Source: a virus. From it: DNA of 26,140 nucleotides. Shown here piece after piece: positions 4,960 to 26,137 of the stretch (positions within the stretch are counted from its first letter, which is position 1; the number at the start of each line of letters is the position of its first letter). Made by a program: the position numbers and the translations under genes. The stretch is taken from positions 1 to 26,140 of the IMG/VR virus record IMGVR_UViG_3300006077_000025, one strand, 5' to 3'. Below the pieces are notes generated by a model. The model searched no databases. It was not told where the DNA came from and was given only the letters and a program-made list of their open reading frames with translations.

Positions 4960-5760
4960 ATGGAATATTTAGAGTCAGCATACGGAAACAAGGCGACAAT
5001 CAGCAGGTACACTTCAGAAGAACACGCACAATCTATCCTAAATGACATGGACTTAGCTGGGAACACAAATTGCGTGGACTGCATCGGGTGTCGTTTGTGT
5101 GATGAGTGTATCGAATGTGATGACTGCTACTCTTCATCTTTTTGCAAGGAATCTACAAATTTACAAAATTGTGAAAAGTGCATTAACTGTCACAATCTCG
5201 TGAAGTGTGAAGAGTGTGAGAAATGTTTTGATTCAGGATTTTTGTATGATTGCAAGAACGTGAAAGACAGTGAGAAAGCCAAAAGTTGCACCGATTGTGA
5301 AGAGATGTACGATTGTGAAGACATGGAGAAGTGTGAAGATTGTACTGAATGTAAGAAATGTTATGATTGCCATGGTCTGGAGAACTGCACAAAACTTTAT
5401 GAATGCAATGGCTGTAAAGATTGTAATGATTCTGATGAGCTACTGGATTGTGAAGATTGTGACGACTGTATCAAAATCACTGAATCAACTGGACTGAGAA
5501 GTTGCGAGGGGTGTCGTTGGTGTGCAGACTGTACAAACTGTATCGATTGTGATAAATGCTCTGATTGTGAAAATTGTGAAGATGTTGCCGATTCTCAAAT
5601 GTGCAAGTATTGTACCTCAAGTCATGAGCTATACAAATGTTCAAAATGTTATGATTGTATTAAATGTAATTATGCTGACAATTGCACCAGATGCAAAAGG
5701 ATTAACGGTTGTAAGAACCTCAAAGACGAAAAGAACAAAGAGTGCGACTCCAAAAGATGA
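4960..5760 (+). CDS. Cysteine triplet-repeat protein, unknown function
   Basis: A 266-aa protein with ATG after AGAAGG. After a 37-residue leader it becomes a continuous series of three-residue units. I count 49 cysteines, and the 48 from C38 to C251 all lie at positions equal to 2 modulo 3, with no phase slip across 214 residues. Where the unit does not carry Cys, the same position is Ser, Leu, Met, Val, Ala or Ile, often in the order Ser-Leu-Cys (65-68-71, 92-95-98, 158-161-164, 176-179-182, 221-224-227). The two other positions are mostly Asp, Glu, Lys and Asn. No signal peptide or membrane segment. The strict period suggests a solenoid or extended rod with one cysteine face, able to bind metal or form a thiol ladder; this is inference. 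It starts a unit under P2 and overlaps the next gene. Confidence 0.85.
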   Translation: MEYLESAYGNKATISRYTSEEHAQSILNDMDLAGNTNCVDCIGCRLCDECIECDDCYSSSFCKESTNLQNCEKCINCHNLVKCEECEKCFDSGFLYDCKNVKDSEKAKSCTDCEEMYDCEDMEKCEDCTECKKCYDCHGLENCTKLYECNGCKDCNDSDELLDCEDCDDCIKITESTGLRSCEGCRWCADCTNCIDCDKCSDCENCEDVADSQMCKYCTSSHELYKCSKCYDCIKCNYADNCTRCKRINGCKNLKDEKNKECDSKR

Positions 5761-20207: not shown

Positions 20208-22493
20208 ATGTCCAACTATGAAAACATCACCGTTATTCACACCGATGGAAGCCAAACCCCTTTTACCATCCATCCAATCAGAGACATGATAGAAAGAGCT
20301 TGTCACAAAACATCAGTCAAACCACATGAGATCGAATCCATCATTTCTCTGTCAATTGGGAAAAGAAAAACGATCAAAACATCAGACATCCAGACAATTC
20401 TTATCGACTCTGTCTTCAACAAGATCGATGAAGATCATCCTGAATATGCTCTGATAGCAGGAAGACTCAAACTTTCTCTTCTTCAAAAACAAGTCTTCAA
20501 AATCAGTGGAATCAGCCATGATGACCCTGATGTTCTGAAGAAGATGTACTACTTCAACAAAAAACGATACTATCGGAAAGACAAAGCTCCAGAAGACATC
20601 TTGAGTGAAAAGGAATTGAAGTCTTTCACTCAATTCATCATCAACAATAATGAAGACTTCAACAGAGACATCAATCAACTCAATGCCATGGAAAAAAAAG
20701 ACTACCTCATCAGAGACATTAAAAACAGAGTGAGAGAGTACCCATTCATCATGGATGCTCTCAATGCTCTATATCTGACAATGTACGAGAATGAAGAAGA
20801 GAGACTGGAGTTGGCAAAATACTACTTCTTAGAGTTCACGAAAGACAAGGTGTCGTTGGCAACCGCTTTGAGAAGAAACCTTCGACGACAAAGAGGAAAC
20901 CTCTCATCTTGTTTCATCGGTGAAATGCCAGACGACCTCAACGGTCTAATGAACGGCTACAAGTCAATTGCCAGAATCTCCAAACATGGCGGTGGTCTTG
21001 GTTGGTTCTTTGGAAACATCTCCCCATCATGTGCATCATCACTCAATGTCAAAAAGAGAAAACCAGTCACTGCATGGGTGAGAGTCGCAAACGCTCTCTC
21101 AATCGTCGATCAGGGTGGAACAAAGCCAATGGCTCTCACAGCTGCAATCCCATGGTGGCATTACGATGTCAGACTCTTCCTTGATATCAAAAAGGAAAAC
21201 AGTGGTGAGTTGAGAGACAAAGCCTTTGACATCTTTCCACAGATTGTCGTTGATGACTTCTTTGTCGAGAAAGCAAGGAAGAGAGAAGATGTCTATCTCT
21301 TCGATCATCATGAGGTCTATCAAAGATTTGGAATCGACATGAATGGACTGGTGCATGATGAACTCTATGAAGCTCATGAGTTTATTCAAGAGTCTATCAA
21401 AGATGGAACACTTCAACACTTCGTCAAGATCAAAGCAAATGAACTCTGGAAGATGATTTTAGAGAGTTGGTATGAGATCGGTGATTTCTATATTACGCAC
21501 AAAGATATGCTCAACATCCACAATCCATTGCTCAACAGAAAAATGACTGCAAAGTGTGCAAACCTTTGTGTTGAGAGTTTCTCTGTTTCAAAGCCAACGA
21601 TGAGTTGGAGCGAGACTGTTGAAGACGGTGATGTGGTCAACGCTGAAGCAGATGGAATGACGCACGTGTGCAATCTTGTTTCAATCAACATGGACAAAGC
21701 CTATGAGACATTAGAACACAGTGTCAAGGTTGCGATCAGAATCTTAGATGCTTCTATTGATCTCTCTACATATCCAGTGGTGGAAGCTGAAAATTCTGCA
21801 AAAGCTCTAAGGAATGTTGGTCTTGGTGGTCTTGGTTGGGCTGATCTGATGGCACGCAAGAAGCTGATGTACAACACCCCAGAAGGTCTGAACTTCATGG
21901 AAGAAACACAAGAAAGAGTTGCTTTCTACGCTTATCAAACATCAATAGAGTTGGCGAAACAAAAAGGTGCATATCCATTGTTTGATGCGACGGAGTATGA
22001 AGAGAGAGGGTTGTTTGGAAGAAGATTCAACATTCTGGAAATGGAGTCAAAAAACCATTTTCCATGGATGAAACTTGGTTTTGATATCCAGAAGTATGGA
22101 ATCAGAAATTCATGGTTACTTGCCATTGCACCAAACACAACATCAGCATTACTCATGGGTACAAGTGCTTCATATCTTCCAGTGTTCTCGAAAGAAAACA
22201 TGCAACAGACAGCGACAATGACTGCGAGTGTGATACCAAAACACATCAAGAGTCGTTACTGGTACTACAAAGGAAGGTTCAATTACACGGTTGCCGAGAT
22301 GGTTGAGGTGACGGCACGACTTCAAAAATGGGTGGACACGGGTATCAGCTTTGAAGTCAACATCAATCCAGATATACAGAATATGAAAGACATATCCGAT
22401 GCTTTCTTGAATGCCTTTTCAGAAAAACGGTTGAAAGCGATTTATTATGTTCTAGGCATCGGCAAGGGCAGTTGTGAGGATTGTGCTAATTAG
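20208..22493 (+). CDS. nrdA: Ribonucleoside-diphosphate reductase class Ia, alpha subunit
   Basis: A 761-aa protein, the same length as E. coli NrdA. An N-terminal ATP-cone (VIHTDGSQTPFTIHPIRDMIERAC) gives allosteric control. Active-site residues are in place: Cys235 in NLSSCFIGE, the N452-x-C454-x-E456 loop in CANLCVESF, and Cys488 in VCNLVSIN, matching E. coli C225, N437-C439-E441 and C462. The radical-relay Tyr pair is Y746-Y747 in AIYYVLG, and the thioredoxin-reducible tail is C756-E-D-C759. It reduces ribonucleotides to deoxyribonucleotides for phage DNA synthesis together with NrdB encoded 2 kb downstream. Codon use (CTC, ATC, AAC) differs from the baseplate genes. Uninterrupted: no intron. 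A hairpin starts at the stop codon. Confidence 0.97.
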   Translation: MSNYENITVIHTDGSQTPFTIHPIRDMIERACHKTSVKPHEIESIISLSIGKRKTIKTSDIQTILIDSVFNKIDEDHPEYALIAGRLKLSLLQKQVFKISGISHDDPDVLKKMYYFNKKRYYRKDKAPEDILSEKELKSFTQFIINNNEDFNRDINQLNAMEKKDYLIRDIKNRVREYPFIMDALNALYLTMYENEEERLELAKYYFLEFTKDKVSLATALRRNLRRQRGNLSSCFIGEMPDDLNGLMNGYKSIARISKHGGGLGWFFGNISPSCASSLNVKKRKPVTAWVRVANALSIVDQGGTKPMALTAAIPWWHYDVRLFLDIKKENSGELRDKAFDIFPQIVVDDFFVEKARKREDVYLFDHHEVYQRFGIDMNGLVHDELYEAHEFIQESIKDGTLQHFVKIKANELWKMILESWYEIGDFYITHKDMLNIHNPLLNRKMTAKCANLCVESFSVSKPTMSWSETVEDGDVVNAEADGMTHVCNLVSINMDKAYETLEHSVKVAIRILDASIDLSTYPVVEAENSAKALRNVGLGGLGWADLMARKKLMYNTPEGLNFMEETQERVAFYAYQTSIELAKQKGAYPLFDATEYEERGLFGRRFNILEMESKNHFPWMKLGFDIQKYGIRNSWLLAIAPNTTSALLMGTSASYLPVFSKENMQQTATMTASVIPKHIKSRYWYYKGRFNYTVAEMVEVTARLQKWVDTGISFEVNINPDIQNMKDISDAFLNAFSEKRLKAIYYVLGIGKGSCEDCAN

Positions 22494-23694: not shown

Positions 23695-23987
23695 AGACAT
23701 ATGACGAAATTCAAGATGAGTTCAAGAAACTCAATGAAAGAGCTGAAGAGATGATTGTTGGGAATTTAAGTTTGATTGAGAGACTGGTCAAAAACAACCT
23801 CATCACTAAAGAAGCTGATCGACAAAAAGTCAAAGATGATTTTGAGAACATTGGTCGTTTTCTGCAAGAGATCAGACAAGACACCAAAACAAAAGAATCA
23901 GAGAAAGCGAAACAGTTGAGGTTTGCAAGAATGAATTCAGAAGAACTGATGGAAGAAGCACTGAAGATGAATAGAAAGGAAAAATGA
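23691..23987 (+). CDS. Small coiled-coil protein, 98 aa
   Basis: Highly charged helical protein (EIQDEFKKLNERAEEM, VKDDFENIGRFLQEIRQDTKTKESEKAKQLRF, MNSEELMEEALKM). Starts with an ATGA overlap on the previous gene and its own TGA overlaps the ATG of the homing-endonuclease remnant. No family recognised. Confidence 0.55.
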   Translation: MKTYDEIQDEFKKLNERAEEMIVGNLSLIERLVKNNLITKEADRQKVKDDFENIGRFLQEIRQDTKTKESEKAKQLRFARMNSEELMEEALKMNRKEK

Positions 23988-24103
23988 AGATGGGATATAT
24001 CATGGAAAAGAAATATTCAAGAGGTCATATCGGAAAAAGACATCAGACAACTGAAGGTTACATGGTGACTGTTGTTGACGGTGGGAGTAAACCTAAAATG
24101 TGA
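23984..24103 (+). pseudogene. N-terminal remnant of an HNH/AP2 homing endonuclease
   Basis: A 39-codon frame reading KKYSRGHIGKRHQTTEGYMV then VTVVDGGSKPKM and TGA. This matches, from memory of the family, the opening of T-even-type HNH endonucleases that carry an AP2 domain (GK...NEGY.V.VVDGG.K). The rest of the family lies in another frame from 24100, and the middle region usually found between the two parts is absent, so an internal deletion appears to have joined the ends out of frame at ATGTGA (24098-24103). Confidence 0.55.
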
Positions 24104-24591
24104 CCGTTTGTGACGAATGGCTGAATTTTCAAGTCTTCGCTAAATGGTATAATGAACAATCGTACAAGCATGATGATCTGGATAAAGACATTCTCTCTAA
24201 TGGAGCTAAGATGTACTCTCCAGAAAATTGTGTTTTGATTTCAAGAGAGTTGAACGCATTCATGGCAAACGTCCATTCAAACAACACATCTGGAGTCGTT
24301 GGAGTGAGTTGGCACAAACAGCATCAAAAATGGATTACACGTATCAGTGACCCTCGGACAGGGCAAGAAAGATTTTTAGGCTACTTCAACAACAAATACG
24401 AGGGTGGTGTTGTGTATAGGAAAGCAAGACTTGAAATCTATGAGAATTACTACAAACCAAAGTTCTCTAATAGTCATGACGAAAGAATATTCAAAGCTCT
24501 TGACAAACAACTCAAAAGAGAAATAGAAGATGTTGAGAGAGACTACATAAACTCTGTTTCATTAACTTCAAAACAAAAAGGAAGACATTGA
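24100..24591 (+). CDS. C-terminal part of an HNH endonuclease with AP2 domain (likely eroded)
   Basis: A 163-aa frame from a GTG. It starts inside the family: TVCDEWLNFQVFAKWYNEQSY, LDKDIL, MYSPENCVLISRELNAF (the H-N-H-like metal-binding half), then an AP2-type DNA-binding domain NNTSGVVGVSWHKQHQKWITRI ... RFLGYFNNKYEGGVVYRKARLEIYE. Intact relatives carry about 60-80 more residues before VCDEW. The frame is otherwise clean, so a shortened protein could be made through the GTG that overlaps the upstream remnant. It lies directly before nrdB, a classical homing target in T4-type phages. DNA nicking is expected of intact members; activity here is doubtful. Confidence 0.7.
   Translation: MTVCDEWLNFQVFAKWYNEQSYKHDDLDKDILSNGAKMYSPENCVLISRELNAFMANVHSNNTSGVVGVSWHKQHQKWITRISDPRTGQERFLGYFNNKYEGGVVYRKARLEIYENYYKPKFSNSHDERIFKALDKQLKREIEDVERDYINSVSLTSKQKGRH
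24563..24582 (+). promoter_or_regulatory. TAACTT motif before nrdB
   Basis: TAACTTCAAAACAAAAAGG inside the 3' end of the endonuclease frame, 25 bases before the nrdB TTG; the A-rich part ends in the nrdB ribosome site. nrdA has the same motif at 20167. Confidence 0.3.
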
Positions 24592-25553
24592 AACAGAAGA
24601 AACTCTTCAACCCAAATGCGATCGATCAAGAAGTCAGCATCTTCGGTGGTGAAACGACAAACCTATTGGATTTGACGGAGATTGTTTATCCCAAATTTCA
24701 TGAGTTGACGGACAAGGCGTTCTCTAACAACTGGTTGCCACATCGTCAGAGCATGATGAATGACAAATATGACTATGAGAACAATCTCACTCAACCAGAA
24801 AAGGATGCGTTCAACAAGCTTGTCAGCTTCCTAACCTTCCTAGATTCGCTCCAGACAAACAACCTACAAAACATCATGGCGTACATCACTTCGCCTGATA
24901 TCGTCTATTTCCTAGCCCGTCAGACGTACGACGAGTCACTTCATTCAAGATCATATGCTCACATCTTGACATCAATCATGTCAGTGCAGGAAGCAAAAGA
25001 CCTCATCAACCTCTGGAATGACTATGAACCGTTGAAAAAGAGAAATGAATGGATTGCCGACATCTATCAAACATTCGTTGACAAACCGTCAGAGAGAAAC
25101 TTCGTCAGAGCATTGTTAGGGAATTTCATGCTAGAGGGAGTTTACTTCTGGAGTTCATTCTATTTCTTTCACAATCTTGGGTCGAGAGGGCTGATGAACG
25201 GGAGTCAAATCCAAATCAAGTACATCCAAAGAGATGAGTACGTTCATTTGCAAGCATTCATCGAAATCTTCAGAATCATCAGAGAGGAAAAATCAAACCT
25301 CTTCAATGAAATGAAGAGTGAATTGACTGATCTCTTCCAAAGAGCGGTTGAGATCGATCTGGAATTTTCCAATGATGTCATTGGTGACGAAATCTTTGGA
25401 ATCAACACGACCACAAACACAGATTTCACGTTCTACAACGCCAACACCAGAATGAAAGAGATTGGTCTTGAAGCGATCTTTCCAAAGAGTCAGAACCCTT
25501 ACAGACACTTAGACAGAATGGCGGCGTTTGATGATGAAACGACACAGCGATAA
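24588..25553 (+). CDS. nrdB: Ribonucleoside-diphosphate reductase class Ia, beta subunit (C-terminal tail cut off by TAA)
   Basis: A 321-aa frame, TTG start overlapping the preceding TGA, with AAGGAAG upstream. The di-iron site is complete: Asp86 (FLDSLQ), Glu116 and His119 (DESLHSRSY), Glu183 (MLEGVYF), Glu217 and His220 (RDEYVHL), and the radical Tyr123, corresponding to E. coli D84, E115, H118, E204, E238, H241 and Y122. The protein stops 19 residues after the NPYRHL segment, whereas class Ia beta subunits continue with a flexible tail that carries the relay Tyr and docks in NrdA. The missing tail is present in the same frame right after the TAA (25554-25622). As written, the product should bind iron but not transfer the radical. 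Confidence 0.95.
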   Translation: MKQKKLFNPNAIDQEVSIFGGETTNLLDLTEIVYPKFHELTDKAFSNNWLPHRQSMMNDKYDYENNLTQPEKDAFNKLVSFLTFLDSLQTNNLQNIMAYITSPDIVYFLARQTYDESLHSRSYAHILTSIMSVQEAKDLINLWNDYEPLKKRNEWIADIYQTFVDKPSERNFVRALLGNFMLEGVYFWSSFYFFHNLGSRGLMNGSQIQIKYIQRDEYVHLQAFIEIFRIIREEKSNLFNEMKSELTDLFQRAVEIDLEFSNDVIGDEIFGINTTTNTDFTFYNANTRMKEIGLEAIFPKSQNPYRHLDRMAAFDDETTQR

Positions 25554-25622
25554 AACCAATTTGAAGTTTCATCGACTACATATAAACAAGCAAACACAAT
25601 TGATGGATGGGATGAAATATGA
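25554..25622 (+). pseudogene. nrdB: In-frame nrdB C-terminal tail after the TAA
   Basis: Same frame as nrdB, 22 codons to TGA 25620-25622. It reads NQFEVSSTTYKQ... and ends DGWDEI. The spacing Glu-x5-Tyr (E326, Y332 counting the stop as 322) equals E. coli Glu350-Tyr356, and E-V-S-S is shared with E. coli EVEVSSY. Its TGA overlaps the ATG of the next gene as ATGA, the usual junction in this genome. This shows that nrdB ended at 25622 in a recent ancestor, or still does through readthrough. Confidence 0.75.
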
Positions 25623-26137
25623 AAAACTACATAGGTGTAAAAGAGATAAGAGCAAAGAAAATGAGTAGAGGTGAGTACAACACCTTAAGGGGTTGGGAAC
25701 TTCCAAAAGATGAAGACCCGACTGATGAAGGATACTTGGTAGAGTATCTTGATAGCAACACAACTGTTCACCCCGACTTTGAAAACTACATCAGTTGGTC
25801 TCCAGCCGATGTGTTTGAGCGTGCATACAGACAAACCGATGGAATGAGCTTTGGTTTGGCTATTGAAGCTATGAAGATGGGCTATAAGCTTGCTAGAAAA
25901 GGTTGGAACGGAAAAGACATGTGGATTGTTTATATGAGTGGTATGAAACTACCGCCATATAACACACAAGGCACCAATAGAAAAGTAAACGATAGAACGG
26001 CTAAACTGATAGGTGAAGACACCCCACTTGTAACACTCCCTTATATAGCAATGTGGACTGCTGATAAAAAGTGGCTACCCGGATGGCTTGCAAGTCAAAC
26101 AGATATATTGGCTGATGATTGGATGATCGTTGAGTAA
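25619..26137 (+). CDS. Fusion of N4 gp49/Sf6 gene 66-like domain with DUF2829 (Tad2-type anti-Thoeris) domain
   Basis: A 172-aa protein. Residues 1-71 match the N4 gp49/Sf6 gene 66 family: YIGVKEIRAKKMSRGEYNTLRGWELP, DEGYLVEY, YISWSPADVFERAYR; function unknown. Residues 76-172 match DUF2829: MSFGLAIEAMKMGYKLARKGWNGKDMWIVYM, a variable loop, LPYIAMWTADKKWLPGW and SQTDILADDWMIVE. DUF2829 includes Tad2, which binds the cyclic ADP-ribose isomer used by Thoeris defence and so blocks it. ATG 25619 overlaps the TGA of the nrdB tail, so it belongs to the nrdB operon. Whether this protein has Tad2 activity is inference. The stop lies three bases before the window end. Confidence 0.8.
   Translation: MKNYIGVKEIRAKKMSRGEYNTLRGWELPKDEDPTDEGYLVEYLDSNTTVHPDFENYISWSPADVFERAYRQTDGMSFGLAIEAMKMGYKLARKGWNGKDMWIVYMSGMKLPPYNTQGTNRKVNDRTAKLIGEDTPLVTLPYIAMWTADKKWLPGWLASQTDILADDWMIVE

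What the first reader, a model, noticed from the sequence alone, without database searches (positions are those of the whole stretch)
25551..25622. nrdB is interrupted by an in-frame TAA that separates the catalytic core from its own radical-transfer tail
The beta subunit frame stops at 25551-25553, but the same frame continues for 22 codons with FEVSSTTY and DGWDEI. The Glu-x5-Tyr spacing equals E. coli Glu350-Tyr356, residues needed to pass the radical to NrdA. The TGA ending this tail forms an ATGA overlap with the next gene, so gene order still assumes nrdB ends at 25622. All iron ligands and Tyr123 remain intact, so decay is not general. Either the stop is read through or suppressed, or a recent nonsense change (for example AAA to TAA) or a sequence error occurred. 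A split or regulated beta subunit would be new.
Basis: partly seen in the sequence, partly recalled or inferred. Interest (0 to 1): 0.85.

Follow-up and report, generated by a model that had tools for sequence, protein, structure and literature searches.

The report
Phage nrdB with premature stop codon
An uncultivated T4-like phage contig carries a DNA-precursor enzyme gene (nrdB) cut short by one stop codon just before its essential tail; the tail is still readable and every relative has it uninterrupted, so this is most likely a recent single-base inactivation or a contig error rather than a new kind of split enzyme.

Summary
The nrdB frame (TTG 24588) stops at TAA 25551-25553 after 321 aa. 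The next 22 codons are a genuine class I NrdB C-terminal tail: against a profile of relatives they score 46.8 bits, versus -3.1 for the next best of 19,091 stop-free 22-codon words in the window. The TGA ending the tail overlaps the start of a Tad2-like gene. All 167 homologues examined keep the tail; none has a stop there. The stop sits in one alignment column held by Ser, Ala, Thr or Gly in nearly all relatives, so nothing is inserted. TAA ends 15 of 31 window ORFs, so a code change is unlikely. The tail has no start codon, so it cannot be a separate subunit. No suppressor tRNA, intron or readthrough structure was found in this 26-kb contig. NrdA keeps its catalytic and Tyr-Tyr motifs. Tail conservation says the stop is recent, or the tail is still translated. 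Best reading: a one-lineage nonsense substitution that leaves NrdB unable to pass its radical. A contig error is the main rival and cannot be excluded without reads. Readthrough has no positive support. Split and broken RNR genes are already documented in phages.

The parts
24588..25553 (+). nrdB as delimited by its stop: 321-aa class I RNR beta subunit body (TTG start, TAA stop) with all metal ligands and the radical Tyr
   Evidence: (PF00268, 227 bits)
25551..25553 (+). in-frame TAA occupying exactly one alignment column that is Ser/Ala/Thr/Gly (rarely Glu, Val, Asp, Gln) in homologues
25554..25622 (+). remaining 22 codons of the NrdB C-terminal tail (Glu-x5-Tyr radical-transfer and alpha-binding tail) plus TGA; no ATG/GTG/TTG in frame
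25619..26137 (+). Tad2-like (Thoeris anti-defence) gene; its ATG overlaps the TGA that ends the tail
   Evidence: PF11195, 8.1e-24
24100..24591 (+). remnant of an HNH homing endonuclease; matches only positions 251-404 of a 420-position family and lacks the conserved block before VCDEW; ends overlapping the nrdB start
23984..24100 (+). possible N-terminal fragment of the same endonuclease in another frame (MKMGYIMEKKYSRGHIGKRHQTTEGYMVTVVDGGSKPKM); tentative
   Evidence: no profile match on its own
20208..22493 (+). nrdA, intact alpha subunit with SSC, NLCVE, YY and C-terminal CEDC motifs

Best explanation
A T4-like phage with an ordinary class I ribonucleotide reductase (intact NrdA, NrdB with a normal metal site) has suffered a recent single-substitution nonsense change in nrdB, one codon before the conserved tail. 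Translation ends at residue 321. The truncated protein should still fold and bind its metals (inferred), but it lacks the Glu/Tyr and terminal residues that dock on NrdA and carry the radical, so this copy would be inactive. The phage would then depend on host reductase or another copy. Shown here: the stop, the homology of the tail, and the absence of the stop in relatives. Inferred: that the stop is really in the phage, and loss of activity (from the literature on E. coli E350/Y356).
For: Tail homology is decisive. All 167 homologues examined keep the tail: 163 were matched directly, and one search shows it in L019, in L125/L131 once TGA is read as sense, and behind an insert in L006. Twelve phage contigs at 42-51% identity read R/K-[S/T/A/V]-[N/G]-x-F-E-x-[T/S]-S-x-x-Y-K with no stop. 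The stop fills one column, so there is no insertion. The tail is as conserved as the body (0.41-0.73 vs 0.42-0.51), and all five tail residues invariant in relatives are kept; 10 random substitutions would keep them only 7% of the time, so the change is recent. TAA ends 15 of 31 ORFs. No tRNA, no Rfam RNA or intron, fold z = -0.9. E350 and Y356 are essential for turnover in E. coli (PMC8463856). The neighbouring endonuclease is also broken.
Against: Only one contig carries the stop and no sibling record was found, so a base error in the contig would look identical. The intact tail and the kept ATGA overlap would also fit readthrough.
Confidence: 0.54

Rival explanations
1. Sequencing or assembly error, or a rare strain variant taken into the consensus. 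The phage population has an intact nrdB of about 344 codons.
For: Single metagenomic contig, a linear IMG/VR fragment. The stop lies 590 bases from the contig end. The tail shows no decay, and the gene arrangement (ATGA overlap) assumes a full-length gene. No relative has the stop.
Against: No other conserved structural or replication ORF in the window looks cut by a simple nonsense error (profile matches), so the contig is not generally error-ridden. No direct evidence either way.
Confidence: 0.36
2. The TAA is read through or suppressed at some rate, giving a short and a full-length beta subunit, perhaps to regulate reductase activity.
For: The tail keeps every residue invariant in relatives and the ATGA overlap; PMC7918605 argues that in-frame stops in prokaryotic genes are sometimes read through. 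Only 26 kb of the phage is known, so a suppressor tRNA elsewhere cannot be excluded.
Against: TAA is the commonest terminator here (15 of 31), and PMC7918605 describes TGA, not TAA, as the leaky stop. No downstream structure. No tRNA in the window. The stop is not conserved in any relative, and conserved position is the usual hallmark of programmed readthrough.
Confidence: 0.06
3. Recombination near the 3' end of nrdB (co-conversion linked to the upstream homing endonuclease) joined a foreign body to a resident tail, and the stop arose at or after that junction.
For: GC3 falls from 0.55 in the body to 0.18 in the tail; the best change point is 25527, reached by 6 of 1000 shuffles. An HNH remnant lies directly upstream; nuclease genes mark boundaries of exchange in phages and often lie near RNR genes (PMC10448857).
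Against: The tail also holds the translation start region of the next gene, which tends to be AT-rich; other overlapping genes in the window also end at GC3 0.14-0.45. Recombination between homologues would not itself make a stop.
Confidence: 0.04

Closest known systems
Class I ribonucleotide reductase beta subunit (NrdB/NrdF, PF00268; closest curated model NF007184)
   Same: Complete metal site, radical Tyr, N-terminal KLFNP and GG-x-x-TN motifs, and a conserved F-E-x5-Y-K tail
   Different: The reading frame ends one codon before the tail; both the truncated (295.9 bits) and the read-through form (304.1) fall just below the model cut-off of 310
Aeromonas phage Aeh1 split nrdA (genes-in-pieces RNR, functional)
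   Same: A phage RNR gene interrupted, with a homing endonuclease in the neighbourhood (PMC2988022)
   Different: Aeh1 has two separately translated pieces split by an inserted endonuclease gene; here there is a single stop codon, nothing inserted and no second start
T4 mobE and I-TevIII homing endonucleases beside or inside nrdB
   Same: HNH-type endonuclease between nrdA and nrdB; T4 I-TevIII is likewise inactivated by a deletion (PMC2988022)
   Different: Here the endonuclease is a remnant just upstream of nrdB; its family relation to mobE was not tested
Degenerating phage RNR genes (e.g. nrdA of Campylobacter phages)
   Same: Loss or interruption of an auxiliary reductase gene in a phage lineage (PMC3653736)
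   Different: Those involve inteins and insertions in related phages; here one nonsense codon in one contig

Membership tests
Class I RNR beta subunit (NrdB) | Ferritin-like small-subunit domain with the carboxylate/His metal ligands | tested here: met
   PF00268 227 bits; D86, E116, H119, E183, E217, H220 invariant
Class I RNR beta subunit (NrdB) | Radical-site Tyr and radical-path Trp in the body | tested here: met
   Y123 and W49 invariant with phage homologues
Class I RNR beta subunit (NrdB) | C-terminal tail with the Y356 equivalent translated with the body | tested here: not met
   The tail is present in frame but behind TAA 25551-25553; present uninterrupted in homologues
Class I RNR beta subunit (NrdB) | Partner alpha subunit with catalytic Cys and Tyr-Tyr dyad | tested here: met
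   NrdA 20208-22493 keeps SSC, NLCVE, YY and a C-terminal CEDC, aligned to solved alpha subunits
Genes-in-pieces (split) RNR such as Aeh1 nrdA | Second piece has its own translation start | tested here: not met
   No ATG, GTG or TTG in frame between 25554 and 25619
Genes-in-pieces (split) RNR such as Aeh1 nrdA | Intervening inserted sequence | tested here: not met
   The stop occupies a single alignment column; no Rfam intron in the window
Stop-codon reassignment in phages | The recoded codon is avoided as a terminator | tested here: not met
   TAA ends 15 of 31 window ORFs, including the neighbouring Tad2-like gene
Stop-codon reassignment in phages | Phage suppressor tRNA | tested here: inconclusive
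   None in the 26 kb held; the rest of the genome is not available
Programmed stop-codon readthrough | Stop conserved among relatives, with a stimulatory context or structure | tested here: not met
   No relative shares the stop; fold z = -0.9
Nonsense-mutated gene (recent pseudogene) | Stop truly present in the phage population | not testable with these tools
   Needs reads; no sibling contig found

The most novel reading that the evidence does not exclude
The ochre codon is read through at a controlled rate, so that the phage makes a majority of tail-less, radical-loaded but uncoupled beta subunits and a minority of full-length active ones: a translational throttle on phage ribonucleotide reductase.
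Probability: 0.04. Interest if true: 0.8.

Novelty: new member of a known kind. Interest (0 to 1): 0.2.

Why it matters
If the stop is real, it is a clean natural example of a phage losing its own reductase through loss of the radical-transfer tail alone, with alpha and the metal site still intact: a snapshot of the first step in decay of an auxiliary metabolic gene. If it is an error, it matters only for annotation. Only the unlikely readthrough reading would be new biology.

Tried and rejected
Alternative genetic code: rejected as a general explanation, TAA is a normal terminator here. Intron, intein or bypassed insert: rejected, no extra residues relative to homologues and no Rfam hit. Separate translation of the tail: rejected, no start codon. 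Relatives that naturally end at about 321 aa: none; the four homologues that at first seemed to lack the tail are explained by a longer C-terminus (L019), TGA-recoding Gracilibacteria-type genomes (L125, L131) and an HNH-bearing insert in nrdB (L006). Readthrough hairpin: not found. Searches for sibling contigs with NrdB, NrdA, the portal protein and a DNA pattern spanning the stop found none. A short imperfect direct repeat at 24642/25527 was considered as a recombination seed and set aside as probable chance.

Full report
WHAT IS THERE. The window is itself a whole IMG/VR record of 26,140 bases, a linear fragment. Its genes are those of a T4-like myovirus: portal, baseplate wedge, tail tube, scaffold and major head protein. 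nrdA (20208-22493) and nrdB (24588-25553) lie about 2 kb apart. nrdB starts with TTG at 24588 and stops at TAA 25551-25553 after 321 residues; the same frame then runs 22 sense codons to TGA 25620-25622, which overlaps the ATG of the next gene. That next gene is Tad2-like (PF11195, E = 8.1e-24).

IS IT MORE THAN CHANCE. An open run of 22 codons after a stop is ordinary here: 7 of 30 ORFs have one at least that long. The sequence of the run is not ordinary. Against a profile built from ten relatives the tail scores 46.8 bits; the next best of 19,091 stop-free 22-codon words in all six frames scores -3.1. In 163 homologues whose tail was matched directly, Glu to Tyr is six positions in 157, as in E. 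coli Glu350-Tyr356.

RELATIVES. Single-protein searches found no close sibling, nor did a DNA pattern spanning the stop. An alignment query gave 80 viral and 80 genomic loci. With seven annotated phages this makes 167 homologues. All keep the tail: 163 were matched directly, L019 has it with an extension, L125 and L131 have it once TGA is read as in the Gracilibacteria code, and in L006 it lies beyond an insert that carries an HNH reading frame. None has a stop at the window's position. The column is Ser 52, Ala 40, Thr 39, Gly 24, Glu 4, Val 2, Asp 1, Gln 1. The twelve nearest phage contigs (42-51% identity) read, for example, RSNQFEVTSITYK where the window reads R-stop-NQFEVSSTTYK.

HOW OLD. 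Tail identity to eleven relatives is 0.41-0.73 against 0.42-0.51 for the body, and all five tail residues invariant among them are kept. Random substitution of 10 of the 66 bases would keep those residues and an open frame in only 7% of trials, 15 in about 1%. So either the stop is recent or the tail is still translated. This test cannot separate these two, nor either of them from a contig error.

MECHANISMS EXCLUDED OR UNSUPPORTED. A general code change is not supported: TAA ends 15 of 31 ORFs, TGA 11 and TAG 5. An intron or insert is excluded by the one-column fit, and Rfam finds none. Independent translation of the tail is excluded by the lack of any in-frame ATG, GTG or TTG. No tRNA gene lies in the window, though most of the genome is probably missing. 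The RNA around the stop folds no better than shuffles (z = -0.9). Programmed readthrough would normally be conserved among relatives; it is not. A survey of in-frame stops describes TGA, not TAA, as the leaky stop (PMC7918605).

CONSEQUENCE. In E. [quoted passage not shown] A 321-residue product would lack all of this. The partner NrdA keeps SSC, NLCVE, the YY dyad and a CEDC end, aligned to solved alpha subunits, so the enzyme was probably complete until recently. Loss of activity is an inference, not shown here.

SURROUNDINGS. The ORF directly upstream of nrdB (24100-24591) matches only positions 251-404 of a 420-position HNH endonuclease family (phrog_953) and lacks the conserved block that precedes VCDEW in three relatives. 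A possible N-terminal fragment lies in another frame at 23984-24100; it gave no profile match alone and remains tentative. T4 carries mobE between nrdA and nrdB, and its intron endonuclease I-TevIII is inactive through a large deletion (PMC2988022), so a broken endonuclease beside nrdB is not unusual. GC3 drops from 0.55 in the body to 0.18 in the tail, best change point 25527, reached by 6 of 1000 shuffles. This may mark a recombination junction, or only the AT-rich start region of the Tad2-like gene.

VERDICT. Observation confirmed. Best reading: recent nonsense change in one lineage (0.54), with contig error or rare variant the main rival (0.36); readthrough 0.06; recombination-linked origin 0.04. 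Interrupted RNR genes are already well documented in phages (16 of 128 genomes in PMC3653736; Aeh1 in PMC2988022), so this adds a case, not a kind. Reads over the position would settle it.

Noticed in passing
23984-24591: HNH homing-endonuclease remnant between nrdA and nrdB, with an internal loss and apparent frame change; its stop overlaps the nrdB start codon.
   Followed up: partly
25527-25619: Sharp drop in third-position GC at the 3' end of nrdB (0.55 to 0.18), best change point 25527; recombination junction or start region of the next gene.
   Followed up: partly
25619-26137: Tad2-like Thoeris anti-defence gene directly after nrdB; Tad2-like matches also lie within a few kb of nrdB in L049 and L050.
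   Followed up: no
L006:3995-5838: Alicyclobacillus phage KKP_3916 nrdB is annotated as 221 aa, but its C-terminal part including the tail lies about 820 bases downstream, behind an insert with an HNH reading frame; probably an unannotated intron, though Rfam finds no match.
   Followed up: partly
L125, L131: Two bacterial MAG contigs (L131 titled Gracilibacteria) whose NrdB has an in-frame TGA and a normal tail when TGA is read as Gly (code 25).
   Followed up: yes
4960-5760: Cysteine-rich 266-aa ORF with repeated C-x-x-C motifs, matching phrog_15341 of unknown function.
   Followed up: no
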